Shown: piece by piece, positions 43,619-58,387 of the stretch | Layout: the number at the start of each line of letters is the position of its first letter | How positions within the stretch are numbered: the first letter of the stretch is position 1 | Source of the DNA: Nonomuraea sp. NBC_00507 | GTDB lineage: Bacteria > Actinomycetota > Actinomycetes > Streptosporangiales > Streptosporangiaceae | Reading direction: 5' to 3' | Length of the DNA stretch: 64,000 nt | NCBI RefSeq assembly: GCF_036013525.1 | Contig: NZ_CP107853.1 | Location: 12,630,371-12,694,370, forward strand | Made by a program: the position numbers and the translations under genes | Notes under the pieces: model-generated | Seen by the model: the letters and a program-made list of their open reading frames with translations, nothing else | What the model was told of the DNA's origin: nothing | Databases searched by the model: none

Positions 43619-45430
43619 TCAGGAGTACAGGTTGAGCTCGTGGATGGACCACCAGTTGCCGGCCCAGCCGGTCTGGACGATCCGCAGGTAGCGCTTGGTC
43701 TGCGCGGGGAAGGACACCGTGGTCGTGGCGGCACCGGTGCCGGAGGCGATCGCCGCGCCCCACGACTGGGGGTCGTCGGAGGCGTAGACCTGGAAGCCGC
43801 GAGGCTCATCGCCGCCTGCGGAGGTGAAGCGCAGGGTGGAGAAAGTGCGGGCTTGGCCGAGGTCGACCTGGAACCACTGGCCGTTGGTCTGGGCCTGCCC
43901 CGTCGACCAGCGGGTCGACTCGTCGCCGTCCAGCGCACGAGCGGGCGCATCCTCGGCGGCCGACACCGAAGCGGTGGCCGTCCAGCCGGTCCGGCTGAGC
44001 ATGCCGCCGGGGGTACCGGACGGGGCGGGCCAGGTGTAGGTGGCCATAGAGCGTGCCGGGAGGCTGGAGGCGAAGGTACGGTCGTTCTCCGTGACGGAGA
44101 AGGGCTGCGCCGAAGTGGTGGTGTTGAGGGCGACGAGGACACGGGAACCGTCGGGGTTGACGAAGGCGACGTTCTGGACCTCGGCGGAGCTGGTGGAGCC
44201 GACCCTGACCGCGCCCGGCTTCACGAACCTGGCGGCGTGGGAGAGGACGTAGTACTCGGCGTTGCGGGTGTACGTTGCGCCGTTGATCTCGACGACGCCG
44301 TTGCAGCGGTTGGAGCAATGGCCCTGGTGCGGACCGCCTGACGGGTTCAGGGCCAGGTTCCAGGTGATGGTGGACTCCCCGCCGTTGCGGGCGTTCTGGA
44401 TGAACAGGTTCTCCGCGTGCCACATCAGCGTGTCGGCGAACGTGGCGGCGCTGTCGGCGCTGTCGGTGCCGCTGCACTCGGTGAACATGACCCGCTTGCC
44501 GGCGTTGACGACCTGCTGCTGGGCGGAGACCTGTCCGCCGTAGCAGTGGAAGGCGGCACCGACCAGGCGGGGGAGGTTTCCGACTCTCGAGAACACGTCG
44601 AGGGGGTAGTCGGGACGATCCCAGTTGTGGTCGTAGGCCCAGATCCGGGTGTTGAGCCCCGCGGCGGTGAGCTTGGCATCGAGCAGCTTGATCAGCTCGG
44701 CCTGCTGCTCGGACGACATGGCCATCGACGGGTAGCTGGTGGGGAACAGCGGCTCGTTCTGGACCGTCAGGTCGTCGACCGGGACGCCCGCGGCGCCGTA
44801 CGCCTGCACGAACTTCACCAGGTAGTCGGCGTAGGTGGCGACATACTCGCTCTTGAGCGAGCCGCCGTTGAGGTTGTTCGAGTCCTTCATCCAGGCCGGC
44901 GCGCTCCATGGGGAGCCCATCACCTTGAGCACCGGGTTGAGCTGCCTGGCCTGGCGGACGAGCGGCAAGATGTTCTCGATCTCGTCCCGCTGGACGCTGA
45001 ACCGCGACAGGGTCGGGTCGGCGGCGCCGTCATCGTAGGTGTAGAAATCGGCGGTCCGGTTGAAGTCGGTCGCGCCGATCGGCTGGCGCAGATAGTTGAG
45101 GCCCGCCGTCTGAAACAGATCGGCCATCAACGCGTTACGCCGGGCCGTCGGCATGGCCGCGATCAGTGAGGCGGAGGCGCCGGTGATGGAGGCGCCGAAT
45201 CCGGCCATGGTCTGGTGGGTCTCGGCGGGGGACACCACCACGTTCCGTGCCAGAGCGGGGGCACCGAAGGCGGTATCAGGCTGTCGGGCCAGCTTGGCGG
45301 CCCCGTCCGCCGTGGTCAGCCAGACCTGGACGGCTGGCGCCGCCTGAGCCGACGTGGTGTGGAGAGCGAGGGTGCCTGCTAGCACACAGCCGAGTGCCGT
45401 GGCCGTGGCGAGGCTTCGGCGGAGATGCAT
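43619..45430 (-). CDS. Secreted GH30 glycoside hydrolase with C-terminal F5/8 (CBM32-like) domain
   Basis: A 603-residue enzyme. A signal peptide (ATALGCVLAGTLALHTTSAQA) precedes a GH30 barrel with Glu226 in TVQNEP (acid/base) and Glu318 in FTECSG (nucleophile). The GH30 side beta-sandwich follows, then from ~residue 465 a discoidin/F5-8-type galactose-binding-like domain: ARALDGDESTRWSTG, WFQVDLGQA and YLRIVQTGW. It binds and cleaves an extracellular polysaccharide; beta-1,6-glucan or a related glycan is a guess from family resemblance. It is the first gene of the operon, with GGAGGAGC before the ATG and a LacI operator further upstream. Confidence 0.9.
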   Translation of the reverse strand: MHLRRSLATATALGCVLAGTLALHTTSAQAAPAVQVWLTTADGAAKLARQPDTAFGAPALARNVVVSPAETHQTMAGFGASITGASASLIAAMPTARRNALMADLFQTAGLNYLRQPIGATDFNRTADFYTYDDGAADPTLSRFSVQRDEIENILPLVRQARQLNPVLKVMGSPWSAPAWMKDSNNLNGGSLKSEYVATYADYLVKFVQAYGAAGVPVDDLTVQNEPLFPTSYPSMAMSSEQQAELIKLLDAKLTAAGLNTRIWAYDHNWDRPDYPLDVFSRVGNLPRLVGAAFHCYGGQVSAQQQVVNAGKRVMFTECSGTDSADSAATFADTLMWHAENLFIQNARNGGESTITWNLALNPSGGPHQGHCSNRCNGVVEINGATYTRNAEYYVLSHAARFVKPGAVRVGSTSSAEVQNVAFVNPDGSRVLVALNTTTSAQPFSVTENDRTFASSLPARSMATYTWPAPSGTPGGMLSRTGWTATASVSAAEDAPARALDGDESTRWSTGQAQTNGQWFQVDLGQARTFSTLRFTSAGGDEPRGFQVYASDDPQSWGAAIASGTGAATTTVSFPAQTKRYLRIVQTGWAGNWWSIHELNLYS

Positions 45431-45480
45431 GATGCTCCTCCTTCGATGGGGGGTGAGGGAGAACCTGGATGAAACAAAAT

Positions 45481-45503
45481 GAAACATTTCTGTAAAATGT
45501 TTC
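45481..45503. promoter_or_regulatory. LacI-family operator for the GH30 operon
   Basis: GAAACATTT-CTGTA-AAATGTTTC is an inverted repeat with perfect 9-bp arms and a 5-bp spacer. It lies between the divergent GH30 and LacI genes, 51 bp from the GH30 start. A further half-site TGAAAC occurs at 45470-45475 and another at 45591-45596. Confidence 0.75.
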
Positions 45504-45611
45504 GTGTCACATGAGTACTCGCCCGGTTCCGCCCTGTCAAGAGTCCCCTGTGTACAGCCCTTGAGATCGGAGAACGGTATGCTGCGTCTGTGAAACGAAG
45601 TGATGTAACTG

Positions 45612-46659: not shown

Positions 46660-47124
46660 CTGGTCACCCTCACGAATCAGAACGACCTCAGCGCGGCCAA
46701 CCAGCAACTGTCCGGCGTCCACTGCGACACCCTCCACATCCAGCTGGAGATGTCGGCCTCCGCCGCGAGCCGCTACGGAATAAAGGTCAGGCGCAGCCCC
46801 GCGGGAGAGGAGGAGACACTCCTGTCCTACAACAAGAACGACAAGACCTTCTGCGTCGACCGGACCCGCTCGGGCGCCATCTCCAGCCTGTTCGCCGACC
46901 TGGGCGTGCAGTGCGGTCCTGTCGCTCTCGCGGACGACGTCCTCACTCTGGATCTGTTCCTCGACAAATCCATGGTCGAGGCCTATGCCGGGGACCACAA
47001 GTCGATCACTACCCGCGTGTACCCCGCCCGCGCCGACTCGATCGGCCTGGCCCTGTTCGCCGACGGCACCGTCACGGTCAAGTCGCTCAAGGTCTGGGCG
47101 ATGAAGTCCGCTTTCACCGACTGA
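46660..47124 (+). pseudogene. Orphan GH32 C-terminal domain fragment (beta-fructosidase remnant)
   Basis: After the LacI stop, an open frame of about 154 codons encodes only the C-terminal beta-sandwich of a GH32 enzyme. Diagnostic strings are YGIKVRRSPAGEEET, FCVDRTRSG, LTLDLFLDKSMVEAYAG, TTRVYPARADSIGLALFADG and VKSLKVWAMKS. The catalytic five-bladed propeller that should precede it is absent, and no good start codon or ribosome binding site is visible. It is most simply the 3' end of a deleted levanase/inulinase/sucrase gene. It borders the fructan cluster to its right. Confidence 0.75.
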
Positions 47125-47172
47125 ATGATTGAGTCCGAGGCTGTACGTGTCGCGCAACCCCGGGGCGGATGG

Positions 47173-48081
47173 TCAAACCGGGGTCGCCGACACTGAGGAA
47201 AGCAGGCCGTCGATCTCCTGCGGGCTGGGTGGCACCGCGCCCTCCCGAGTGCACACCACGGCCGCCGCCGCGCATCCGTAGCGCAACGCGTCGCCAACCC
47301 GCTCCCCAGTGAGCTCACCGTCGCCGAGAACCGTGAGATAGGCGGCGGTGAAGGTGTCCCCCGCGCCGACGGTGTCGACGAGTTCCACGAGGGGAGCGGG
47401 GCAGGTGATCACCGAGTCGCCCAGGATCGCCGACGCGCCGTCGCCGCCCCGGGTCACCACGACCAGGCGCTCACCCGGCCACGCCGCCCAGCGTTTCGCC
47501 GCATCCAGGTCCGGCTCGCCGGGATACAGCCAGGCCAGGTCCTCCGCGCTGACCTTGACCAGCCGCGAGATCCGTACGCATTCCTCGACCAGCGTGAGCG
47601 CAGACGCCCGGTCCGCGATGAGCGAGGGGCGGATATTGGGGTCGTAGGAGACGATGACCCCGGCGTCGGCCGCGGCCCGCATCACCTCCCGGACATGCGC
47701 CGCACCGGACCCGACGAGCGTGGCCAGCGATCCGGTGTGCAGGCAGGTGACGCCGTCGAGTGAGACCGGACCGGAAAATCGCCAGTCGAACCGGAAGTCG
47801 TAGGACGCCGACCCGTCGTCACCGATCCTGGCGAAAGCCAGGCTGGTTGCGGCACCGGGGACGAGCTCTCCTTGTCCGACCCCGTGCCTGCCGAGATGGC
47901 CCCGCAGCAGGTCGCCGAAGAAGTCGCCGCCGATCTCGCTGGCGAGTCTGACCTGTTGCCCGAGCGTGGCCAGGGCGACCGCGACGTTGAGCGGGCTGCC
48001 TCCCGCGACGGCGCTGAACCGCGATGCGTCGGGCGTGCCGATCAGGTCGACGATGCTCTCGCCGATCACCAGGAACGTCAT
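47173..48081 (-). CDS. PfkB family carbohydrate kinase, probable fructokinase
   Basis: A 302-residue ribokinase-fold sugar kinase from the ATG at 48081 (MTFLVIGESIVDLIG). It carries GGSPLNVAVALATLG near the N-terminus, ASYDFRFDWRFSG in the lid, SYDPNIRPSL, and the catalytic-Asp/anion-hole motif DTVGAGDTFTAAYL at the C-terminal end. Length and motifs match fructokinases that make fructose-6-phosphate. It is divergent from the ABC importer of the fructan cluster, and the shared 204-bp gap contains two palindromes, so uptake and phosphorylation are probably co-induced. Confidence 0.88.
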   Translation of the reverse strand: MTFLVIGESIVDLIGTPDASRFSAVAGGSPLNVAVALATLGQQVRLASEIGGDFFGDLLRGHLGRHGVGQGELVPGAATSLAFARIGDDGSASYDFRFDWRFSGPVSLDGVTCLHTGSLATLVGSGAAHVREVMRAAADAGVIVSYDPNIRPSLIADRASALTLVEECVRISRLVKVSAEDLAWLYPGEPDLDAAKRWAAWPGERLVVVTRGGDGASAILGDSVITCPAPLVELVDTVGAGDTFTAAYLTVLGDGELTGERVGDALRYGCAAAAVVCTREGAVPPSPQEIDGLLSSVSATPV

Positions 48082-48120
48082 GTGCCCTCCCCTCGTGACG
48101 GCGACATGGTGACACGTGCT

Positions 48121-48130
48121 GAATCGATTC
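48121..48130. promoter_or_regulatory. GAATCGATTC palindrome, same core as the operator before the third LacI gene
   Basis: A perfect 10-bp palindrome located 40 bp upstream of the fructokinase ATG. The same GAATCGATT core occurs twice in the inverted repeat at 56290-56320 in front of the LacI gene at 56330, so this site may be bound by that LacI protein. Confidence 0.55.
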
Positions 48131-48209
48131 TGCAAGCACAGGGACTCGTTCCAGGGGCATTACGACGAAGTTTCCGGCGCCCTCTTGACCTCCCTCGATA
48201 TGGAGGCTT

Positions 48210-48225
48210 ACGTTTGCGCAAACGT
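48210..48225. promoter_or_regulatory. LacI-type palindromic operator upstream of the fructan importer
   Basis: ACGTTTGCGCAAACGT is a perfect 16-bp palindrome with a central CG, the classical form of LacI/GalR-family operators. It is 61 bp upstream of the binding-protein ATG at 48286. The regulator is probably one of the two LacI proteins in the cluster. Confidence 0.72.
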
Positions 48226-48285
48226 TTTTGCTCAGCAGCGGTTCGGGGTGCGCCGCATGAGCCCCAGGCTGATGGGAGAGGGCAC

Positions 48286-49590
48286 ATGCCTCACAACTCA
48301 GGGCTGTCCCGGCGCGACCTGTTGAAGTGGACGGGCGTGTCGGGCCTGGCGGTACTGGCGACCGCGTGCGGCGCCGGCGGGACGACGAGCGGATCGGGCA
48401 CGGGCGGCGCCAAGGCGCTCAGCGTCCTGGTCGAGGCGGGCGGCAAGGCGGAGCTGACGAAGATCGCCGAGGCGTTCACCGCGAAGACCGGCGCGAAGGT
48501 GACGTTCATCGAGCTGCCGTACGACGGCCTGTTCAACCGGCTGTCCGGCGAACTGTCCTCCGGCACCCTCAGCTTCGACGTGGCCGCGCTGGACGCGATC
48601 TGGCTGACCGCGTTCGCCGGAGCCGTTCGCCCCCTCACCGAGCTGTTCACCGCGGACGTCAAGGCCGACCTGTTCCCGGCCCTGGTGACCGAGGCGCAGG
48701 TCGGCGGCACGTTCGTCGGCATGCCGGTGTGGACGAACGCCGAGATCCTCTTCTATCGCAAGGACCTGTTCGAGGACACCGACGAGCAGGCCGCCTTCAA
48801 GAAGAAGTACGGCTACGAGCTCGCCCCACCCACGACGTGGGAGCAGTTCAACGACGCGGCGGCGTTCTTCACCCGCGACGGCAAGCTGTACGGCACCGAC
48901 GTCAAGGGCGCGGTCGAGACCGAATTTCTCGCGCACGTGCTGCAAGCCGGGTCGCCGGGCGTGGTTCTGGACGCCGCCGGCCAGGTCATCATCGACAACG
49001 ACCAGCACCTGAAGGCGCTGACGTTCTACAGCGACCTCAACAACAAGCTCAAGGTGAGCCCTCCCGGCGCCGCGCAGCTCGACTGGGCGGGCGCGCAGAA
49101 CCTGTTCAATCAGGGCAAGACGGCGATGATGCGGTTCTGGGCGCATGCGTTTCCGCTCATCCCGAAGGACTCCCTGGTGCACGGCAAGGTCGGCGCCGCC
49201 CCCATGATCGGCGGAGCCGCCGGAGTGGCGGGCATCCCCGGACCCTGGTATCTCTCGGTGCCCAAGGCCACCAAGCAGGCCGACCTGGCCACCGAGTTCG
49301 TCAAGTTCGCCTACGACAACAACGCGATGGCGATCGAGTCCTCGCTCGGGCTGGCCGCGCGGAAGTCGGCATTCGAGCAGTACGCCGACAAGCCCGGCTA
49401 CGAGCACTTCAAGCCGCTGCTGGAGACCCTCAACGCGACGGCCACCAAGCCACGCCCTGCGACGGCCAAGTGGCAGCAGATCGTGGACACCGTGCTGATC
49501 CCGACGCTGCAGCAGTCGCTCAACCCGAACGCCGACTACGCGGGCCTGCTGGCCGCCGCCAAAGACAAGGTGCAGAGCCTTGCCCAGTAG
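48286..49590 (+). CDS. ABC sugar-binding lipoprotein of the fructan/DFA cluster
   Basis: A 434-residue family-1 solute-binding protein. The signal carries a twin-arginine motif (SRRDLLKW) and a lipobox ending at Cys28 (ATAC), so export by Tat and lipid anchoring are likely. The mature protein shows LSVLVEAGGKAELTKIAEAF, FDVAALDAIWLTAFAGAVRP and MPVWTNAEILFYRKDLFED. PWYLSVPKATKQADLATEF is also present. Context (GH91, GH172, beta-fructosidase-like enzyme, fructokinase) suggests a fructo-oligosaccharide or difructose anhydride as cargo; sequence alone does not show it. The downstream permease starts within its last codons. Confidence 0.9.
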   Translation: MPHNSGLSRRDLLKWTGVSGLAVLATACGAGGTTSGSGTGGAKALSVLVEAGGKAELTKIAEAFTAKTGAKVTFIELPYDGLFNRLSGELSSGTLSFDVAALDAIWLTAFAGAVRPLTELFTADVKADLFPALVTEAQVGGTFVGMPVWTNAEILFYRKDLFEDTDEQAAFKKKYGYELAPPTTWEQFNDAAAFFTRDGKLYGTDVKGAVETEFLAHVLQAGSPGVVLDAAGQVIIDNDQHLKALTFYSDLNNKLKVSPPGAAQLDWAGAQNLFNQGKTAMMRFWAHAFPLIPKDSLVHGKVGAAPMIGGAAGVAGIPGPWYLSVPKATKQADLATEFVKFAYDNNAMAIESSLGLAARKSAFEQYADKPGYEHFKPLLETLNATATKPRPATAKWQQIVDTVLIPTLQQSLNPNADYAGLLAAAKDKVQSLAQ

Positions 49591-50578
49591 TCCGAACCCC
49601 ACGGTGGGCCGGGTCGATCCCCGGCCCTCCGGCGGCGCTATCCGGGCCGGCGATGATCACGTCCGGCACCGGCGGCGCCGACGGGGTCGTGGGCTCACTG
49701 ACAACCGGTTCGCGCTGGCGTTGATGGCCCCGGCGGCGGTGTTCCTGGCAGTGTTCGTCGGCTGGCCGCTGGTCAAGCTGGTCGTGGACAGCCTGTACGA
49801 CATCGCCCCGCTGGCCGGGACGCGCGAGTTCACCGGACTGGCCAACTACGGTCAGGCACTGACCTCTCCGGAGTTCCTTGGCGCCGCCGGCCGGACGGCC
49901 CTCTACACGATGCTCGTGGTCACGCTGGAGTTCACCCTCGGGCTGGCGGCGGCCCTGCTGTTCAACGCGCTGGGCAGGCGGGCGAGGTGGGTTCGGACCC
50001 TGTTCCTGTATCCGCTGATGATCGCCCCGGTCGTCGCGGGCCTGCTGTGGCGGTTCCTGCTCATCGACAACTTCGGCATCGTCAACGAGCTGCTCACCCG
50101 GCTCGGCATCATCGACGGACCCGACGCGATCGGCTGGCTGAGCGACCCGGACATCGTGCTGTTCTCGGTAGCGTTGCCGGACATCTGGCTGACCACGTCG
50201 TTCATGGCCCTGGTGCTGTTCGCCGGACTGCAGAACATCCCGGGCGACGTGCTGGAGGCCGCCCACCTCGACGGCAGCGGACCCTGGCACACCCTCACCC
50301 GGGTGACGCTGCCGCTGCTGCGGCCGGTCATCGCCGTCGCGCTCGTCGTACGCGGCATCGACGCGGCGCGGGCCTTCGACGTGATCCTCATCCAGACCAA
50401 CGGCGGCCCGCAGTCGGCCTCCGAGACGCTCAGCCTGCTCATCTACCGGACGATGGTGCGCTTCGGCGAGCCCGGGCTCGCCAGCGCCATGGGCACCCTC
50501 TACCTGATCGCGATGCTGGGCGTGGCACTGATCGCGGTCGCCACCATCTGGCGACCGGGGAAGGGGGTGCAGCGATGA
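49580..50578 (+). CDS. ABC sugar transporter permease, MalF-type (fructan/DFA cluster)
   Basis: About 332 residues. The first possible start is a TTG at 49580 overlapping the binding-protein gene by 11 bp. The basic N-terminal tail is followed by FALALMAPAAVFLAVFVGWP, five more hydrophobic segments, and the EAA loop NIPGDVLEAAHLDGSGPWHT. The GPQSASETLSLLIYRTM segment near the C-terminus is typical of sugar permeases. A start further in (before LTDNRFALAL) is possible. It overlaps the next permease by 4 bp. Confidence 0.87.
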   Translation: MPSSPNPTVGRVDPRPSGGAIRAGDDHVRHRRRRRGRGLTDNRFALALMAPAAVFLAVFVGWPLVKLVVDSLYDIAPLAGTREFTGLANYGQALTSPEFLGAAGRTALYTMLVVTLEFTLGLAAALLFNALGRRARWVRTLFLYPLMIAPVVAGLLWRFLLIDNFGIVNELLTRLGIIDGPDAIGWLSDPDIVLFSVALPDIWLTTSFMALVLFAGLQNIPGDVLEAAHLDGSGPWHTLTRVTLPLLRPVIAVALVVRGIDAARAFDVILIQTNGGPQSASETLSLLIYRTMVRFGEPGLASAMGTLYLIAMLGVALIAVATIWRPGKGVQR

Positions 50579-51402
50579 CCCCGCGCACGAGCACCCGGAC
50601 GCTGCTGTGGGCGCTGCTGGCCAGCATCGTGGTGCTGTACGCGTTCCCTTTCGCGTACCTCATCCTGACCTCACTCAAGCTGCCCACCGACGCCATCGCC
50701 GTGCCACCGACGGTGCTGCCCAAGGCCTGGAGCCTGGAGAACTACGGCACCGCCCTGGCCACGCCCGGCGTGATCCCCTCGTTCATCAACAGCACCTCCA
50801 CCGCCGTGATCAGCACGGTGCTGTCGGTCCTGCTCGCGGTCCCGGCCGCATACGGGATCACCCGCTACGGAACCGTGAGCGGGCGGATCTTCATCATGCT
50901 CGCCCTGGTCACCCGGATGGTGCCACCGGTCGCCATCGGGGTCCCGCTGGTCAACCTGATGAGCACAGCGGGCATCACCGACACGCCGACCGCGCTCGCG
51001 CTGGCCCACACGACGATCTCGCTGCCGCTGTCGATCTGGCTGATGGCCAGCTTCTTCGAGGCCGTACCGCCCAGTCTGGAGGAGGCGGCCGTGGTCGACG
51101 GCTGCACGCGGCTGCAGGCGCTGGTGCGGATCGTGGTGCCGGTCGTCGGCGGCGGCATCGCGGTGACCGCGATCTTCGCGTTCCTCGCGTCCTGGAACGA
51201 ATTCCTGTTCGCGCTGCTGCTCACGGCGGTGCGGGCACAGACGACACCGATCGTCATCGCCAACTTCCAGACCCAGTACGGCCTGCAATGGGGGCCCATG
51301 ACCGCACTGGCCACCCTGTACTCGGTCCCCGTCGTCCTGTTCACCCTGCTGCTCCAGCGGCGGATCGTCGCGGGCATGACCCTCGGCGCCGTCAAGGGCT
51401 GA
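50575..51402 (+). CDS. ABC sugar transporter permease, MalG-type (fructan/DFA cluster)
   Basis: A 275-residue CUT1 permease. It has LLWALLASIVVLYAFPFAYL, ILTSLKLPTDAIA and LALAHTTISLPLSIWLMASF. The EAA loop is VPPSLEEAAVVDGCTRLQAL, followed by FAFLASWNEFLFALLL. The ATG at 50575 overlaps the preceding permease stop (ATGA). As in the GH30 operon, no cognate ATPase gene is nearby, so a shared ATPase is presumed. Confidence 0.88.
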   Translation: MTPRTSTRTLLWALLASIVVLYAFPFAYLILTSLKLPTDAIAVPPTVLPKAWSLENYGTALATPGVIPSFINSTSTAVISTVLSVLLAVPAAYGITRYGTVSGRIFIMLALVTRMVPPVAIGVPLVNLMSTAGITDTPTALALAHTTISLPLSIWLMASFFEAVPPSLEEAAVVDGCTRLQALVRIVVPVVGGGIAVTAIFAFLASWNEFLFALLLTAVRAQTTPIVIANFQTQYGLQWGPMTALATLYSVPVVLFTLLLQRRIVAGMTLGAVKG

Positions 51403-51431
51403 CCCACAACCTCGCGAAAGGTCATATATCA

Positions 51432-52553
51432 ATGCAGTTCTGGCAGCCGACCAGCCCGCTGGGCGGACTTCCGCGCGTCAAGGCCGGGCGATCACGGCGA
51501 TCGTCCAGCTGGGACCGCACCGGCGGTAACCGCGACTTCGCCGTCGTCGCCCCCGGCGAGACCCACGTGCTCGCCGACATCGACGGCAGCGGGATCATCG
51601 AGCACATCTGGCTGACCACCCGGTGCTACTCGGAGAAATACCTGCGCAAGCTCGTCATCGAGATGTACTGGGACGGCGAGGACAACCCCAGCGTACGCAG
51701 CCCGCTCGGCGACTTCTTCGGCGTCGGCCACGCCACCTGCACGCACTACGTGTCGCTGCCGCTGAGCATGGTCTTCGGCCCGCGCCGCGGCCCCAAGGGC
51801 CCGTTCGCCGCCGCGATGAACTGCTACTTCCCCATGCCGTTCGGCTCGCACGCGAAGATCGTGCTGCGCAACGAGAGCGACATGCCGGTGGAGAACTTCT
51901 TCTACTACGTCGACTACGAGCTCACCGAGGAGCCGATCCCCGACGACATGGGCCGCTTCCACGCCTACTACCGGCAGGAGAAGCCCTGTCAGAAGGTCGT
52001 GCACCCCGCGGGCGCGGAGAACCCTCCGCCGTGGGAGCTGCCGGGCGTCAATCTCACCGGGGACGACAACTACGTCATCCTGGACGCCACCGGCACCGGG
52101 CACTATGTCGGCTGCGTGCTGAGCATCGACAACTTCGACGCCTCCAACCAGCAGTTCACCTGGCCGGGCGAGGGCGACGACATGATCTTCATCGACGGTG
52201 AGCAGTGGCCGCCGTCCCTGCACGGCACCGGCACCGAGGACTACTTCAACGCCGCGTGGGGATTCCCCAGTGGGGCTTACGCCGGGCCCTACCACGGGAT
52301 CTCGCTGGCCAGCAGCCCACAGGAGCACTTCGGGTTGTGGAGTTTGTACCGCTTCCACATCGAGGACCCGGTTCGCTTTGCCGAGTCCATCCGCGTCACC
52401 ATTGAACATGGTCACGCCAACGACCAGGGCAACGACTTCTCCAGCGTCGCGTACTGGTATCAGCTCCACCCGCACGCCCCTCATGCCGATCTCCCCCCGG
52501 TCGAGGAGCGGCTGCCGCGCCGCTGGCCCGAGCACGGCCTCTGGGACGAGTGA
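51432..52553 (+). CDS. GH172 (DUF2961) glycoside hydrolase, difructose-anhydride-I-hydrolase-like
   Basis: A 373-residue protein without a signal peptide. The DUF2961 signature is clear: VLADIDGSGIIEHIWLTT near residue 40, SPLGDFFGVGH, a Phe/Tyr-rich strand (PVENFFYYVDYELTEEPIPD), and the hallmark LHGTGTEDYFNAAWGFPSG. DUF2961 is now family GH172, whose characterised members include a bifidobacterial alpha-fructofuranosidase acting on DFA I and alpha-arabinofuranosidases. With GH91, a fructosidase-like gene and fructokinase beside it, opening of an imported difructose anhydride to inulobiose is the likeliest role. It follows the permease gene after 29 bp, with a GAAAGG site. Confidence 0.88.
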   Translation: MQFWQPTSPLGGLPRVKAGRSRRSSSWDRTGGNRDFAVVAPGETHVLADIDGSGIIEHIWLTTRCYSEKYLRKLVIEMYWDGEDNPSVRSPLGDFFGVGHATCTHYVSLPLSMVFGPRRGPKGPFAAAMNCYFPMPFGSHAKIVLRNESDMPVENFFYYVDYELTEEPIPDDMGRFHAYYRQEKPCQKVVHPAGAENPPPWELPGVNLTGDDNYVILDATGTGHYVGCVLSIDNFDASNQQFTWPGEGDDMIFIDGEQWPPSLHGTGTEDYFNAAWGFPSGAYAGPYHGISLASSPQEHFGLWSLYRFHIEDPVRFAESIRVTIEHGHANDQGNDFSSVAYWYQLHPHAPHADLPPVEERLPRRWPEHGLWDE

Positions 52554-52601
52554 TGCGGCCGACCACGCCATCAAAGGATCCCCCAGAAGAGGAGTGACGC
52601 G

Positions 52602-53633
52602 GTGACCAGGCGGCCGAGCATCCGTGACGTCGCGCGCGAGGCAGGCGTGTCCATCACGACCGTCTCCCGTGCGCTCAACGACGTCGTGGGCTCCCGGCTG
52701 CCCGACGACACGCGTCGCCGGGTACGCGAGACGGCCGAGCGGCTGGGGTATGCCCCCAACAAAATGGCCCGCGGCCTGCGCACCCAGCGCAGCCACATGC
52801 TCGGGATGATCAGCGATCACATAGCGACCACCCCGCACGCCGGCCGGCTGATCCTCGGTGCCCAGGAGGTCGCGATGACCCGTGGGTGGGCGTTGATGCT
52901 CATCAACACCGGAGGCGACCCGGCCGCCGAGGCGCGCGGCATCCAGGCGCTGCACCAGCAACAGGTCGACGGGGTGCTGTACGCCACGATGTACCACCGG
53001 ATCGTCACGGTCCCGTCCGAGCTGCGCGGTCTCCCGCTGGTCATGGCCGACGCCAGGACCGAAGGCGACGGGCCACCCGCCGTGGTCCCGGACGAGGTCC
53101 GGGGAGGGTACGACGCCACCCGGGAGCTGCTCGACCACGGCCACCGGCGCGTGGGACTCGCCCTCAACAGCGACGACGTCCCCGCCACCCACGGCCGCCT
53201 GCGCGGTTATCGCCAGGCGCTGGAGGAGGCGGGCATCGCCTACGATCCCGAACTCGTCGTACAAAAGGAGTCCGAGACCACCGGCGGCTACCTGGCCTGC
53301 CGCCGGCTGCTGGAGCGCACGCCCCGGCCCACCGCGATCTTCTGCTACAACGACCGCATGGCCATGGGGGCCTACCGCGCGGCCGCCGAACTCGGGCTGC
53401 GCATCCCCGAAGACGTGTCCGTCGTCGGTTTCGACAACCAGGAGTACATCGCCGACGGCCTGTACCCCGGCCTCACCACGCTGCAACTGCCCCACTACGA
53501 AATGGGCGCCTGGGCCGTCGATCGCCTCATGGAGCTGATCGACGACCCCGCCAGGAACGCGGGCGATGTCCCTGACCGGACCCTGCCCTGCCCCCTCATC
53601 CGCCGGTCCTCGGTCGCGGCACCGTCCGCCTGA
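52602..53633 (+). CDS. LacI family regulator (fructan/DFA cluster, first copy)
   Basis: A 343-residue LacI/PurR-type repressor from the GTG at 52602. The helix-turn-helix is IRDVAREAGVSITTVSRALN. The ligand domain includes IATTPHAGRLILGAQEVAM, QQVDGVLYATMYHRIVTVP, TAIFCYNDRMAMGAYRAAAE and VVGFDNQEYIADGLYPGLTT. It closely resembles the LacI protein at 56330 across the ligand domain, so both may recognise related sugars. It lies inside the operon, between GH172 and the fructosidase-like gene, an unusual internal position that would allow feedback control. Confidence 0.92.
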   Translation: MTRRPSIRDVAREAGVSITTVSRALNDVVGSRLPDDTRRRVRETAERLGYAPNKMARGLRTQRSHMLGMISDHIATTPHAGRLILGAQEVAMTRGWALMLINTGGDPAAEARGIQALHQQQVDGVLYATMYHRIVTVPSELRGLPLVMADARTEGDGPPAVVPDEVRGGYDATRELLDHGHRRVGLALNSDDVPATHGRLRGYRQALEEAGIAYDPELVVQKESETTGGYLACRRLLERTPRPTAIFCYNDRMAMGAYRAAAELGLRIPEDVSVVGFDNQEYIADGLYPGLTTLQLPHYEMGAWAVDRLMELIDDPARNAGDVPDRTLPCPLIRRSSVAAPSA

Positions 53634-53667
53634 GGCGTACCGGCGTCATCACCGGAAAGGCCTTTTC

Positions 53668-54627
53668 GTGCTGCGTCTCGACGACCACTGGGTCTGGGAC
53701 TTCTGGCTCGCCGACGACGGCGAGGCCTACCATCTCTACTTCCTCAAGGCGCCCAAGGCGATCGGCGACCCCGACCAACGCCACTGGAACGTCTCGATCG
53801 GCCACGCCGTATCCGCCGACCTCACCGACTGGACCGTACTCCCGGACGCCCTGGCCCCCAGCTCCAGTCCCGCCTTCGACGACTACACCACCTGGACCGG
53901 CTCGATCGTCCGGGCCGACGACGGCACCTGGCACATGTTCTACACCGGCACCAGCCACGCCGAACGCGGCCTCAAGCAGCGCATCGGCCTGGCCACCTCG
54001 GACGACCTGCACACCTGGCGCAAGCACGGCACGGCAGCGATCCTGGAAAGCGATCCGCGCTGGTACGAGCAGCTCCAGACCGCTCAGTGGCCCGACGAGG
54101 CATGGCGCGACCCCTGGGTCTTCCGCGACCCCGGCGGCGATGGCTGGCACATGCTCATCACCGCCCGCTCCCAGGTCGGCGACCCCGACCAGCGCGGCGT
54201 GATCGGCCATGCCCGCTCCCACGACCTGCTCACGTGGGAGACACAACCCCCGCTCAGCGCACCCGGCACCGGCTTCGGCCACCTGGAGGTCCCCCAGGTG
54301 GAGATCGTCGACGGCAGTCCAGTGCTGCTGTTCTCGTGTCTGCGCACCGAGCTGTCGCAGGAACGGCGCCTGGCTGGGGAACGCGGCGGCGTCTGGGTCC
54401 TCGAACCCGGCGACCCGCTCGGACCGTACGACCCGAGTAAGGCGCGGCGCCTCACCGAGGAGTCCCTCTACAGCGGCCGCATCATCCAGGATCGCGAGGG
54501 CGCCTGGATCCTGCTCGCCTTCCGCCACACCGACGACGACGGCTTCATCGGGGAGATCACCGACCCGATCCCCGTGCGCCTCGATCCGGCTCACGGCCTG
54601 CAGAGCACCCAGCCACTCCCGATGTGA
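53668..54627 (+). CDS. Clan GH-J (GH32/GH68-like) beta-fructosidase-type enzyme
   Basis: A 319-residue protein from the GTG at 53668. It has the five-bladed propeller pattern of fructan-acting enzymes. A nucleophile-type Asp lies in WVWDFW (Asp11), then HWNVSIGHAVSADLTDWT, the RDP motif in WRDPWVF (Asp148), and a candidate acid/base Glu in GHLEVPQVE (Glu207 or 212). It lacks the C-terminal beta-sandwich of GH32 and a signal peptide, so it should act in the cytoplasm, for example on inulobiose. It could also be a GH43-like enzyme. It follows the LacI gene by 34 bp. Confidence 0.75.
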   Translation: MLRLDDHWVWDFWLADDGEAYHLYFLKAPKAIGDPDQRHWNVSIGHAVSADLTDWTVLPDALAPSSSPAFDDYTTWTGSIVRADDGTWHMFYTGTSHAERGLKQRIGLATSDDLHTWRKHGTAAILESDPRWYEQLQTAQWPDEAWRDPWVFRDPGGDGWHMLITARSQVGDPDQRGVIGHARSHDLLTWETQPPLSAPGTGFGHLEVPQVEIVDGSPVLLFSCLRTELSQERRLAGERGGVWVLEPGDPLGPYDPSKARRLTEESLYSGRIIQDREGAWILLAFRHTDDDGFIGEITDPIPVRLDPAHGLQSTQPLPM

Positions 54628-54644
54628 CACCCGCCAACTCAAAA

Positions 54645-54683
54645 GACCATCGGACGGCCTTCGACTCAGCCGTCTGACTGGTC
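54645..54683 (+). terminator. Imperfect hairpin after the fructosidase-like gene
   Basis: GACCATCGGACGGC and GCCGTCTGACTGGTC can pair over about 13 bp with one mismatch and one bulge. It lies 18 bp past the stop at 54627 and probably ends or attenuates the importer/GH172/LacI/fructosidase transcript before the GH91 gene. Confidence 0.5.
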
Positions 54684-54835
54684 ACCGGTGCCTGCGCAAC
54701 CGCGGCACCGCCGACAGGTATGCCCGCAGGTACCGCCGCGCTCCCGGGCTGGAGCACGGCGCGCACCTCAGCCCAGCGAACTCCACCTGTCCCTCAACCC
54801 GGATATCGCACCCCCCAACCCTCAGGAGGAACCGC

Positions 54836-56163
54836 ATGACCGAGAAAGACTCCGGCATCGCCCGCCGCATGCTGCTCAGAGTGCCGGCCGTCGGCGCTGC
54901 CGCGGCCGGCTTAGCCGTACTCTCGGGCCAGACCGCCGCATCCGCCAAGGCCGGCAAGCCGCCCACTGTGTACGACGTCACGGCCTGGACCCACTCCACC
55001 AACCCGGCCATCACCTGCTACACCGACATCGGCGCGCTGATCAACGACATCATCGCCGACATCAAGAAGCGCCAGCCCAACCAGTCGTCGAAGCCCGGCG
55101 CGGTGATCTACATCCCTCCCGGCGACTACCCCCTCAAGACGAGGGTCACGGTCGACGTCAGCTACCTCACCATCAGGGGTGACGGCCACGGCTTCGCCTC
55201 CTCCAGCATCCGCTACAACGCAGGAGACACCTCGGCGTGGCACGAGATCTGGCCTGGCGGCAGCCGGATCCGGGTCGAGAACACCGACGGCCACAGCGAG
55301 GCCTTCCTCGTCTCCCGCAGCGGAGATCCGCGGCTGAGCTCGGTCGTCTTCGACAACTTCTGCCTCGACGGGCTCTCCTTCACGCCGAACCAGAACTCCT
55401 ACGCCAACGGCAAGGTCGGGATCCGGGTCGACACGGCCAACGACGCCTTCCGCATCGAGCGGATGGGCTTCGTCTACCTCGAGCGCGCGCTGGTCATACG
55501 CGACGCGGACGCGCTGAGCGTGCACGGCAACTTCATCGCCGAATGTGGCAGCTGCGTGGAACTGATCGGCTCCGGGCAGGCGTCAAAGGTCACCGACAAC
55601 CACATCGGCGCAGGCTACATCGGTTACTCGATCTTCACCGAACAGCACCAGGGGCTGCTGATCGCCGGGAACAACATCTTCCCGCGCGGCAAGAGCTTGA
55701 TCCACCTCCGCAACACCAACCGGTCGTCGATCACTGGGAACCGGCTGCACGGCTTTTACCCCGGAATGCTCGATTCGGACGGGGCCAACAAGGAGAACCT
55801 CATCAGCGGCAACCACTTCCGGAGGGAACCCGAACCCTGGGCCCGATGCAGCCGTACAACAACGGCAAGGACGACCTGTACGGGGTGATCCACCTGCGCG
55901 GTGACGGCAACATGGTCACCGGCAACCTCTTCGCCTACGACGTCGACCCAGCCAAGATCACCCCCTCCGGCGCCAAACCCACGATCATCCTGGTCGCCTC
56001 AGGGCACAACAACCACCTGTCCAACAACAGCCTGGTCAGCAACGTCGCTGCGAACGCCGTTGTGCTCGACGGGAGCACGCACGGCACGAAGGTGATCGAC
56101 AGCGCGACCGCCTCGCAGTTCGTCACCCACACCTCGGACCACACCTTCCGCGCCACCCCTTGA
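54836..56163 (+). pseudogene. Secreted GH91 inulin fructotransferase, interrupted by a frameshift
   Basis: Starting at ATG 54836 (CAGGAGG site), a Tat-type signal (ARRMLLRVPAVGAAAAG) precedes a right-handed beta-helix. Its sequence matches DFA-forming inulin fructotransferases: VYDVTAWTHS, AVIYIPPGDYPLKTRV, FLVSRSGDPRLSSVVF, GFVYLERALVIRDADALSV and FIAECGSCVELIG. Asp225 and Glu236 have the spacing (11) of the catalytic pair I recall for the Bacillus enzyme (Asp233/Glu244). After GNHFRREPEPW the frame is lost; the rest (MQPYNNGKDDLYGVIHLRGD to FRATP) continues in another frame to 56163. One missing base near 55840-55844, in a GGGCCC run, explains it. Restored length would be about 442 residues, normal for the family. 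Either a true pseudogene or a sequencing error. Confidence 0.85.
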
Positions 56164-56289
56164 GCCGGAGCAGGCAGGGGTGGCGCTGCCGCTGGACGCG
56201 CCAGGGCGGCCCCGAGGTCCCGGGCCGGTTCCACGGCATGTAACGCGTCGGAAACGAACTCTTGCCAAATATCCGCATCAGGGCAAGGA

Positions 56290-56320
56290 TGAAGAATCGA
56301 TTTGATGAATCGATTCTTCA
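56290..56320. promoter_or_regulatory. Long inverted repeat, operator of the downstream LacI gene
   Basis: TGAAGAATCGATT (56290-56302) and AATCGATTCTTCA (56308-56320) are perfect 13-bp arms with a 5-bp spacer. It ends where the AGGAGA ribosome binding site of the LacI gene begins, so it is a likely autoregulatory operator. Its GAATCGATTC core also occurs at 48121. Confidence 0.78.
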
Positions 56321-56329
56321 AGGAGAATC

Positions 56330-57352
56330 ATGGGCAAACCGCGGATCAAGGACGTCGCAGCCCGAGCGGGCGTAGGCGTCTCCACGGTGTCCGTGGTCCT
56401 GAACAACGTCGAGGGCGCGCGCGTCGGCCCCGAGACCCGGGAGCGAATCCTGTCCGCCGCCCGCGACCTCGGCTACACCTCCAACCCGATCGCCCGCAGC
56501 CTTCGCACACGGAGGACTCAAACGATCGGCTTCGTCGGCGATGACATAGCGACCACCCCGTTCGCCGGGCGGATGATCCAGGGAGCTCAGGACGCGGCCT
56601 GGCAGGCCGGCTACCTGCTGTTCCTGGTGAACACCGGGGGAGAGCACGCGCTCGAGCGCCACGCCGTTCGGGCGCTGCTCGACCGGAGGGTCGACGGTGT
56701 CATCTACGCCACCATGTACCACCGGCACGTCGAGATCCCCGAGATGCTGGACGACGTGAGCACCGTCGTCCTCGATGCCTGCCCCACCGGCGGCTCCATG
56801 CCGTACGTCGTGCCCGACGAACGCGGAGGCGCGGCTGCGGCGGTCGGCGAACTCCTCCGCGCGGGTCACCGGCGGATCGGGTTCGCCACCGAGGCGCTGG
56901 AGGTTCCGGCGGCATCCGGGCGCCTGACCGGCTACCACGAAACGTTGGCCGCGGCGGGGATCCCCGCCGACCCGGAGCTTGTAGCAGCCGAGCACGGCAC
57001 CACAACCGGAGGCTACCAAGCGGCGAGCCGCCTTCTCGATCTCGACGAACGGCCGACCGCGATCTTCTGCTACAACGACCGGATGGCGATGGGGTGCTAC
57101 CGCGCCGCGGCCGAACGCGGCCTGCGCATCCCCCACGACCTGTCCGTCGTCGGGTACGACGATCAGGACCTGATCGCACCCGAGCTGTCCCCGGCACTGA
57201 CGACCGTCGCCCTCCCCCACTACGAGATGGGGATGTGGGCGTTCCACCGGCTGCTGGGGCTCATCCAGGACGACCCTGAGCAAAGGGAGCAGGGACATCT
57301 CATGCCGTGCCCGCTGGTCAGGCGGGACTCGGTGGGGCCGCCGCCGCGGTGA
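56330..57352 (+). CDS. LacI family regulator (fructan/DFA cluster, second copy)
   Basis: A 340-residue LacI/PurR-type protein with ATG at 56330. The helix-turn-helix is IKDVAARAGVGVSTVSVVLN. The ligand domain shares long stretches with the LacI protein at 52602: IATTPFAGRMIQGAQDAAW, RRVDGVIYATMYHRHVEIP, TAIFCYNDRMAMGCYRAAAE and VVGYDDQDLIAPELSPALTT. The two are clearly paralogues with similar expected ligands but different recognition helices. A 31-bp inverted repeat directly precedes it, and the GAATCGATTC core reappears before the fructokinase gene, so it may link these loci. Confidence 0.92.
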   Translation: MGKPRIKDVAARAGVGVSTVSVVLNNVEGARVGPETRERILSAARDLGYTSNPIARSLRTRRTQTIGFVGDDIATTPFAGRMIQGAQDAAWQAGYLLFLVNTGGEHALERHAVRALLDRRVDGVIYATMYHRHVEIPEMLDDVSTVVLDACPTGGSMPYVVPDERGGAAAAVGELLRAGHRRIGFATEALEVPAASGRLTGYHETLAAAGIPADPELVAAEHGTTTGGYQAASRLLDLDERPTAIFCYNDRMAMGCYRAAAERGLRIPHDLSVVGYDDQDLIAPELSPALTTVALPHYEMGMWAFHRLLGLIQDDPEQREQGHLMPCPLVRRDSVGPPPR

Positions 57353-57358
57353 GACGCG

Positions 57359-58387
57359 ACGGCGACCCGCGACACGGCCGCAAGCCTCACCCCGGCCGGC
57401 CAGCCGGGCCACAACGCCTCGCAGAAGGAGTATCAGATCGTCCACGAGGCGTTCCCCCAGGGCGCCTACAACAACGCCGTCACGGGAGCCGCCACAGCGG
57501 GCAAGTTGCCCTGCCTGCTCGACGCGGACGGACCCGTCGTGCCCAACTGGGCCTGGGCCAAGTATCTGGCGCCGCTAAACCTTCCGCAGGCCACCACGCA
57601 TCCCCACCATCGACACGCCGTGGACCCTGCAGGAGTTCGACGCGGCGCTGGTCAAGCTCGAGAACGAGGGAAAGTTCGACTACGCCCTTGATCTGGGTAC
57701 CGGCGGCAGCGGCGGCGAAGTGGTGGCCGTACGTCTTCTCACCCCTGCTGCAGGGCTTCGGCGGGGATCTCGTCGACCGCTCCTCGATGACCACGGCCGA
57801 GGGCGCGCTCAACGGCCCCGCAGCCGTCAAGTGGGGGGAATGGTGGCAGAGCTTGTTCCAGCGCAAGCTTGCCAACCCGCGCGAGGCCACCGACCGCGTC
57901 GCGTTCTTGAACGGCAAGGCCGCGCTGGCTTGGAAGGGCAACTGGGGGGCGCCGGACGCCGTCAAGAAGTACGGCGACGACGTGCTGTTCCTTCCCCCGG
58001 CCCGACCTCGGCGCCGGGCCGAAGATCGGTGGTGCTTCCTGGCAGTGGGCCATCACCTCCTCTTGCAAGGAGCAGGACGGGGCCCGCAAGTACCTGGAAT
58101 TCTCCCTGAACCCCAAGTACATCGCGCAGTTCTCCAACAAGATCGGCTTGATCCCGGCCACGGAGGAGGCCGCCGCCCTGACCGACAAGTACAAGCAGGG
58201 TGGCCAGTTGAGAATGTTCGCTGACTACTCGCGCAAATTCGCCATGGTTCGCCCACCCACGCCCGCCTACCCGGTGATCTCCAGCGTCTTCGAGAAGGCC
58301 GCGCAGGACATCATGAACGGCTCCGCGGTCAAGGCCCGCCTGGACGCGGCAGTCGACGAGATCGATGCCAACGTCGCTAGCCGATGA
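57359..58387 (+). pseudogene. Decayed ABC sugar-binding protein gene
   Basis: Pieces of a family-1 solute-binding protein are readable in successive frames: KEYQIVHEAFPQGAYNNAVT, then PTIDTPWTLQEFDAALVKLE, then KWWPYVFSPLLQGFGGDLVD and AALAWKGNWGAPDAVKKYGD. Next come GASWQWAITSSCKEQDGARK and finally IGLIPATEEAAALTDKYKQG, ending at a TGA at 58387. The signal peptide and N-terminal ~60-80 residues are missing and at least three frame changes occur. It is a non-functional remnant of a further sugar importer, following the second LacI gene, which may once have controlled it. Confidence 0.82.

What the first reader, a model, noticed from the sequence alone, without database searches (positions are those of the whole stretch)
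46660..58387. Candidate complete difructose-anhydride (DFA) route from inulin in an actinomycete
Seen: GH91 inulin-fructotransferase sequence with a Tat signal, a signal-less GH172 (DUF2961) protein, a signal-less clan GH-J beta-fructosidase-like protein, a fructokinase, a three-gene ABC importer and two LacI regulators, all adjacent. Known: GH91 turns inulin into DFA I or DFA III; a GH172 member opens DFA I. Inference: inulin is turned into DFA outside, imported, opened by GH172, split by the fructosidase, and phosphorylated. This would be a way to monopolise inulin by converting it to a sugar few others can use.
Basis: partly seen in the sequence, partly recalled or inferred. Interest (0 to 1): 0.85.

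Follow-up and report, generated by a model that had tools for sequence, protein, structure and literature searches.

The report
Inulin-sugar uptake cluster, swapped opening enzyme
A soil actinomycete carries genes to turn the plant fibre inulin into a ring-shaped double sugar, take it up and open it inside the cell, and it seems to use a different opening enzyme from the one known in other bacteria; in this genome copy the ring-making gene is broken.

Summary
The gene content is real: fructokinase, binding protein plus two permeases, GH172, LacI, GH-J β-fructosidase, GH91 and another LacI, in a Nonomuraea-like genome. Two corrections. (1) GH91 is frame-broken in this copy; three close relatives are intact. 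(2) Context points to DFA III, not DFA I: the importer is orthologous to that of DFA-IIIase clusters, the Nonomuraea GH91 characterised in print forms DFA III, and this GH172 subfamily lacks the αFFase1 +1-site residues (E85, K147) while keeping the catalytic ones.

GH172 follows permease B, the place that five other clusters give to the GH91 DFA III hydrolase directly before LacI2. Of 24 genomes searched, 7 have this GH172 and no DFA-IIIase, 16 have DFA-IIIase and not this GH172, one has neither. Two DFA-IIIase clusters (Nocardioides, Arthrobacter) keep deleted GH172 relics in that slot. Best reading: this GH172 is a non-homologous DFA III hydrolase, displaced elsewhere by the GH91 enzyme. 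The searches listed no such activity. The three-stage DFA idea itself is published. Substrate and product are inferred; no assay was possible.

The parts
46660..47124 (+). GH32 C-terminal domain fragment (relic), probably not functional
   Evidence: Pfam Glyco_hydro_32C E 1e-31, no catalytic domain; of L004-L009 and L052 found only in L004
47173..48081 (-). PfkB-family sugar kinase, probable fructokinase
   Evidence: PfkB E 4.7e-42; NCBIfam fructokinase 110.7 bits, below its cut-off of 450
48117..48134 (.). candidate LacI-type operator (near-palindrome, AATCGATT core)
   Evidence: AATCGATT core also at 56295 and 56308 upstream of LacI3
48210..48225 (.). candidate operator, perfect 16-bp palindrome upstream of the binding protein
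   Evidence: core found in window, L004, L005, L006 and in none of the other 22 loci scanned; about 0.014 expected per 64 kb from base composition
48286..49590 (+). solute-binding protein, probable DFA III binding protein
   Evidence: SBP_bac_1 E 7.5e-33; twin-arginine profile 19.7 bits, cut-off 22.7; 50-67% identical to binding proteins of DFA-IIIase clusters; tree
49580..50578 (+). ABC permease A
   Evidence: BPD_transp_1; orthologs in DFA-IIIase clusters
50575..51402 (+). ABC permease B
   Evidence: BPD_transp_1; up to 76% identical to the permease of a DFA-IIIase cluster (L026)
51432..52553 (+). GH172 of the subfamily lacking the alphaFFase1 +1-site residues; predicted intracellular DFA III hydrolase
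   Evidence: DUF2961 E 1.3e-83; alphaFFase1 E 2.3e-86; residues; slot and exclusivity; relics; fold
52602..53633 (+). LacI-family regulator (LacI2), conserved in GH172 and DFA-IIIase clusters
53668..54627 (+). clan GH-J beta-fructosidase-like protein without beta-sandwich domain; predicted inulobiose hydrolase
   Evidence: GH32N E 9e-21; D11, D148, E207 invariant in 32 sequences; AlphaFold pLDDT 92.7, top folds inulosucrase, beta-fructofuranosidase and endo-levanase
54836..56163 (+). GH91 inulin fructotransferase gene with twin-arginine motif; frame broken, N part in 54836-55888, C part in the frame ending at 56163
56330..57352 (+). LacI-family regulator (LacI3)
   Evidence: 93-98% identical in L004-L006 and 54% in L009
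57353..58387 (+). broken-frame stretch, possible solute-binding-protein relic
   Evidence: open only in pieces in several frames; piece 57694-58002 SBP_bac_1 E 0.0013, below cut-off, piece 58214-58384 no match; no similar piece in L004-L009 or L052

Best explanation
This is a three-stage inulin route through DFA III. A Tat-exported GH91 inulin fructotransferase turns inulin into DFA III. The binding protein and two permeases (ATPase presumably elsewhere) import it. The cytoplasmic GH172, a retaining alpha-fructofuranosidase, cuts the alpha-Fruf C2-O3' bond of DFA III to give inulobiose. The GH-J protein splits inulobiose to two fructoses, and the PfkB kinase phosphorylates fructose. The GH172 does the job that a GH91 DFA-IIIase does in Arthrobacter and Blautia, and was displaced by that enzyme in some lineages. 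Shown here: gene content, synteny, importer orthology, exclusivity, relics, residue loss. Inferred: substrate, product and each enzymatic step. In this genome copy the GH91 gene is frame-broken (true loss or sequence error), so this strain may depend on DFA III made by others.
For: Importer genes are 50-76% identical to those of clusters with DFA-IIIase, and the binding proteins form one clade apart from those beside alphaFFase1-type GH172 (99/99, long branches). GH172 follows permease B in 7 of 7 GH172 clusters; DFA-IIIase lies directly between permease B and LacI2 in L011, L014, L015, L016 and L119. Of 24 genomes, 7 have this GH172 (over 80% identity), one GH91 and no DFA-IIIase; 16 have DFA-IIIase and no such GH172; N. 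polychroma has neither. GH172 relics sit between permease B and LacI2 of two DFA-IIIase clusters: L023 (E 9e-11 over 19 loci) and L022 (N-terminus E 8e-5 and C-terminus E 2e-4 with the full query, side by side); reversed queries gave one match, E 0.33. The characterised Nonomuraea GH91 is DFA III-forming (PMC4640833 passages; PMC11538131 section). In 150 family genomes the 3 strong GH91 matches (own genome included) were all of the window's lineage. W267, E270, E291 and D292 are kept in 118 of 118 subfamily members, E85 and K147 in 0 of 118, against 6 of 6 in the alphaFFase1 type.
Against: No assay. In the GH91 tree the window lineage (represented by relatives, support only 90/88) groups neither with the Arthrobacter DFA III formers nor with the Streptomyces-like type; those two group together to its exclusion (99/96), so sequence alone does not fix the product. 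Automated names call close relatives 'DFA-I-forming'. The ortholog link to the published Nonomuraea enzyme is inferred; its sequence was not seen. Exclusivity covers related lineages, so 23 genomes are not 23 independent events, and 22 of them were found through GH91. The subfamily also occurs outside actinomycetes, where its context was not examined. Other GH172 enzymes cut alpha-D-arabinofuranosides.
Confidence: 0.68

Rival explanations
1. DFA I route: GH91 makes DFA I, and GH172 opens DFA I like alphaFFase1 of Bifidobacterium dentium.
For: alphaFFase1 (7v1v) is the best PDB match by sequence and fold; database names 'DFA-I-forming' for relatives; a published DFA I prediction pairs GH91, GH172 and GH32 in S. 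davawensis; the GH91 tree does not exclude it.
Against: The window GH172 lacks both; in alphaFFase1, E85A, E85Q and K147A drop inulobiose activity below 5%. The published Nonomuraea GH91 makes DFA III.
Confidence: 0.15
2. GH172 acts on another alpha-furanoside (alpha-D-arabinofuranoside or a mixed alpha-fructoside) and sits in a fructan cluster as an accessory; the GH-J protein or an unlinked enzyme opens the DFA.
For: GH172 enzymes characterised in PMC10115798 and PMC10509167 (passages) are exo-alpha-D-arabinofuranosidases; the subfamily is found in organisms not examined for DFA genes.
Against: Alternation with DFA-IIIase and relics in its slot. The GH-J protein co-occurs with DFA-IIIase in L010 and L022, so it is not the alternative to DFA-IIIase. 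None of the cluster's genes had an arabinan-type Pfam match.
Confidence: 0.12
3. Compatible with the best explanation rather than exclusive of it: the locus is decaying and no longer a working inulin route in this strain (GH91 broken, GH32 fragment and broken frames alongside).
For: Frame break in GH91, GH32 fragment, broken frames on the right, GH91 also degraded in N. polychroma (L029, L052).
Against: Importer, GH172, LacI2, GH-J and LacI3 are open and 91-99% identical to L004-L006, the kinase 87-95%; a single frame break may be a sequence error.
Confidence: 0.35

Closest known systems
DFA III route of Arthrobacter and Blautia (GH91 IFTase in Arthrobacter, ABC importer, GH91 DFA-IIIase, GH32, kinase)
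   Same: Importer and LacI2 orthologous to the Arthrobacter clusters, a PfkB kinase, and a GH91 fructotransferase; Blautia cluster known from PMC11538131
   Different: GH172 instead of GH91 DFA-IIIase; a GH-J single-domain protein instead of GH32
Predicted DFA I route of Streptomyces davawensis (PMC8605356)
   Same: GH91 + GH172 + GH-J clan fructosidase
   Different: Judged by the look-alike clusters L053-L055: different importer lineage, different GH172 subfamily, two-domain GH32, different GH91 branch
alphaFFase1, DFA I synthase/hydrolase, B. dentium (GH172, 7V1V)
   Same: Fold and -1 subsite with both catalytic glutamates; no signal peptide
   Different: 44.6% identity; E85 loop (about 30 residues) missing and K147 is Gly
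Nonomuraea sp. ID06-A0189 inulin fructotransferase (BAN62836)
   Same: Same genus and enzyme type; reported 52.8-54.0% identity to seven DFA III formers resembles the 53-54% found here for L004 against three Arthrobacter-type fructotransferases
   Different: Sequence not available to compare; window copy is frame-broken

Membership tests
GH172 (DUF2961) | match to the family profile over cut-off | tested here: met
   280.5 bits, cut-off 27
GH172 (DUF2961) | two catalytic Glu (E270, E291) and -1-site W267, D292 | tested here: met
   all aligned and conserved
alphaFFase1-type DFA I synthase/hydrolase | +1-site E85 and K147 needed for inulobiose | tested here: not met
   gap and Gly; 0 of 118 subfamily members keep either, 6 of 6 alphaFFase1-type do
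alphaFFase1-type DFA I synthase/hydrolase | activity on DFA I | not testable with these tools
   needs an assay
GH91 | sequence match to solved GH91 enzymes | tested here: met
   2inu E 2.9e-110 for the N part; intact relative L004 matches it over residues 39-442
GH91 | one intact open frame | tested here: not met
   frame broken in the window copy; intact in L004-L006
DFA III-forming inulin fructotransferase | groups with characterised DFA III formers | tested here: inconclusive
   separate lineage in the tree; published Nonomuraea enzyme is DFA III-forming
GH91 DFA III hydrolase | a DFA-IIIase clade member in the genome | tested here: not met
   one GH91 in the genome, 60% to the R. etli DFA-IIIase-clade enzyme, 98% to the L004 fructotransferase
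DFA III import cluster | importer orthologous to that of DFA-IIIase clusters | tested here: met
GH32/GH68 (clan GH-J) | GH32/GH68-like propeller fold with Asp/Asp/Glu | tested here: met
   fold; D11, D148, E207 invariant in 32 sequences; their catalytic role is assigned by motif, from recall

The most novel reading that the evidence does not exclude
A widespread GH172 subfamily without the alphaFFase1 +1 loop is a second, unrelated class of DFA III hydrolase (retaining alpha-fructofuranosidase). It was present in this slot of the DFA III operon in several actinomycetes before a GH91 DFA-IIIase, spreading horizontally, replaced it and left deletion relics.
Probability: 0.6. Interest if true: 0.7.

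Novelty: new variant of a known kind. Interest (0 to 1): 0.6.

Why it matters
It predicts a new activity for GH172, directly testable with one enzyme and two sugars, and fills a gap: a Nonomuraea enzyme is reported to make DFA III, yet no DFA-IIIase was found in the four Streptosporangiaceae genomes with this cluster. It splits GH172 into fructose-side subfamilies by readable residues, gives a case of non-homologous gene displacement with fossils left behind, and offers an enzyme that might make or open DFA III, an industrial prebiotic.

Tried and rejected
Rejected: DFA I reading (see rivals). The GH-J protein as DFA opener was rejected because it coexists with DFA-IIIase in L010 and L022. The GH91 tree as proof of DFA type was rejected as inconclusive. 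Identity of L004 GH91 to Arthrobacter-type fructotransferases (53-54%) matches values reported for the Nonomuraea enzyme, but L004/L005 identities to other GH91 types are close (48-55%), so it does not discriminate. A shared operator with Arthrobacter or Micromonospora clusters was not found: the 16-bp palindrome core is only in the window and L004-L006 of 26 sequences scanned. A 396-genome phylum sample for the importer gave one further genome besides the own. S. meliloti and other GH172 of about 45-55% identity were fetched but their contexts not resolved. Fold search of the GH172 model adds family membership only; its active-site stretch 267-306 has pLDDT under 50.
Full report
WHAT IS THERE. 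The window is the last 64 kb of contig 1 of a 12.9 Mb, two-contig genome. The closest named locus found with GH91 is Nonomuraea (L004, 98% for the N part). The cluster reads, left to right: PfkB kinase (-), binding protein, two permeases, GH172, LacI2, GH-J protein, GH91, LacI3. No ATPase gene was seen; actinomycetes often share one (recalled). GH172, the GH-J protein and the kinase show no signal sequence by eye. GH91 has a twin-arginine motif, and the binding protein a twin-arginine motif and a lipobox-like cysteine (by eye; library scores below cut-off).

GH91 is not a single open frame. The frame from 54836 ends at 55888; the conserved C-terminal part lies in another frame ending at 56163. 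Three relatives (Nonomuraea sp. SYSU D8015, N. jabiensis, Thermocatellispora tengchongensis) are intact there. In N. polychroma (G100; its contig length 11519774, gives the name) GH91 is also degraded and this GH172 type is absent. Whether the window's break is biological or a sequence error cannot be told without reads. The left edge (46660-47124) is only a GH32 C-terminal domain. The right edge is broken into frames; one piece resembles a binding protein weakly (19.3 bits, cut-off 26) and another matches nothing.

WHICH DFA. Three lines point to DFA III. First, the importer: binding protein and permeases are 50-76% identical to those in clusters that carry a GH91 of the DFA-IIIase clade (Arthrobacter, Paenarthrobacter, Pseudarthrobacter, Subtercola, Nocardioides, Devosia, Rhizobium). 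Second, the literature: the Nonomuraea sp. ID06-A0189 GH91 is DFA III-forming (PMC4640833, passages; PMC11538131, section). The primary paper is not held; its title, seen in reference lists, speaks of conservation among other Nonomuraea. In 150 genomes of the family only 3 gave a strong GH91 match, the own genome included, all 91% or more identical to the window's, so the published enzyme is probably of this lineage. Third, the slot (below). Against: the GH91 tree puts the window lineage outside a group that joins the Arthrobacter enzymes with the Streptomyces-like type and 8hsn (99/96), and automated names say 'DFA-I-forming'. For what it is worth, 8hsn is the weakest of 6 PDB matches for the window lineage and the strongest for L054; the PDB listing does not say which DFA 8hsn makes.

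THE GH172. Its nearest solved relative is alphaFFase1, the DFA I synthase/hydrolase of B. dentium (44.6% identity). In alphaFFase1, E85 and K147 are +1-site residues: E85A, E85Q and K147A keep 94-100% activity on an arabinoside but under 5% on inulobiose (PMC8605356, section). All 6 alphaFFase1-type sequences aligned keep both. None of 118 members of the window's subfamily does (59% identity or more to the window; 111 of the 120 listed proteins, six locus copies and the window), while W267, E270, E291 and D292 are kept in all 118. The 120 were the best listed of 7994 hits. So the enzyme should still bind and cut an alpha-fructofuranoside at -1 but has a different +1 site. DFA I and DFA III both have an alpha-Fruf at one side; the leaving oxygen is O1' in DFA I and O3' in DFA III (nomenclature, established). 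A retaining cut of that bond gives inulobiose from either.

THE SLOT, THE ALTERNATION AND THE RELICS. In 7 of 7 clusters with this GH172 it follows permease B (window, L004-L008, and L120, a second contig of the L009 genome). In L011, L014, L015, L016 and L119 a DFA-IIIase occupies exactly the place between permease B and LacI2; in most other DFA-IIIase clusters it lies a few genes away, beside the kinase. A search of 24 whole genomes found 7 with this GH172 (over 80% identity), each with a single GH91 that is not of the DFA-IIIase clade; 16 with DFA-IIIase (63-73% to the R. etli enzyme) and no GH172 of this type; and N. polychroma with neither. Four of the 16 have other or partial GH172 matches (43-51% identity), one of them the alphaFFase1-type of L012. 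One-sided Fisher p for 7/7 against 0/16 is 4e-6, but the genomes are related and, the own genome aside, were reached through GH91, so this is not a clean probability. The strongest single observation is fossil: in L022 (Nocardioides) the gap between permease B and LacI2 holds pieces matching residues 1-33 and 357-373 of GH172 side by side, and in L023 (Arthrobacter ISL-48) residues 329-373, with a weak trace (E about 0.1) of residues 1-13. Both genomes have DFA-IIIase and no GH172 match at E 1e-20. The other 12 of 14 slots tested gave no match at E 1. Over 19 loci (357 kb) the only other forward matches below E 0.05 were to L012's alphaFFase1-type gene; reversed queries gave one match, at E 0.33. 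In the GH91 tree the DFA-IIIases of Nocardioides and Subtercola fall among the Arthrobacter enzymes (90/94 and 98/89), as expected if they arrived by transfer. L022 and L010 keep the GH-J protein typical of GH172 clusters.

THE GH-J PROTEIN. 319 residues, no beta-sandwich domain, AlphaFold pLDDT 92.7; top folds are inulosucrase, beta-fructofuranosidase and endo-levanase. Asp, Asp and Glu at the expected motifs are invariant in 32 sequences. It takes the place, next to LacI2 and the kinase, that GH32 has in several Arthrobacter-type clusters. It is therefore the likely inulobiose hydrolase, not the DFA opener.

REGULATION. A perfect 16-bp palindrome upstream of the binding protein and AATCGATT-centred near-palindromes upstream of the kinase/binding-protein pair and of LacI3 are candidate LacI sites, found only in the window and L004-L006 among the loci scanned (26 sequences for the first; window and 10 loci for the second).

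PRIOR WORK. The three-stage DFA idea is reported as suggested for DFA III (Arthrobacter) and proposed for DFA I (S. davawensis) in PMC8605356 (sections read); Blautia uses GH91 DFA-IIIase plus GH32 (PMC11538131, sections). Searches for GH172 alone (13 papers), GH172 with difructose anhydride (2), GH172 with arabinofuranosidase (5), DFA-IIIase terms (4) and DUF2961 with inulin or fructan (15 of 4,416 listed) listed no title or abstract start that describes a GH172 acting on DFA III. Most of these papers I saw only in the listing; PMC10115798, PMC10509167, PMC4640833 and PMC5438323 in passages; PMC5448860 in the first of two parts. Most papers of subscription journals are not held.

Numbers were recounted (binding-protein identities, subfamily floor 59%, GH172 side matches 43-51%, counts in item two of Noticed in passing) and the right-hand relic was scanned, which weakened its label.

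Noticed in passing
window 43619-45580 (-): GH30 glycosidase with an F5/8 type C domain beside ABC transporter genes (about 40.5-43.8 kb, one permease checked) and LacI1; apparently a separate sugar cluster.
   Followed up: partly
L064 (own genome C1:7455021-7461996): A second region holds two more GH172 genes (one about 54% identical, one distant) with two ABC permease pairs and a LacI; substrate unknown. In 250 family genomes the 53-55% type was found in 9 and the window type in 2, the own genome in both counts.
   Followed up: partly
L012:12000-19500: Arthrobacter nitrophenolicus carries a DFA III cluster with DFA-IIIase and, a few kb away, an alphaFFase1-type GH172 + GH32 + ABC cluster: both DFA routes side by side. 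Its DFA III binding-protein gene appears split.
   Followed up: partly
L052 (N. polychroma), L029: GH91 degraded by deletion and frame change, with no importer or GH172 match in the 19.9 kb fetched: a second case of loss of the extracellular enzyme.
   Followed up: partly
L008:11377-12711, L009:11401-12660: A GH32 gene directly downstream of GH91 in Micromonospora and Saccharomonospora, probably a separate inulin- or sucrose-cleaving enzyme.
   Followed up: no
window 64000: The window ends exactly at the contig end, so the cluster lies within about 6 kb of the end of the assembled contig.
   Followed up: no
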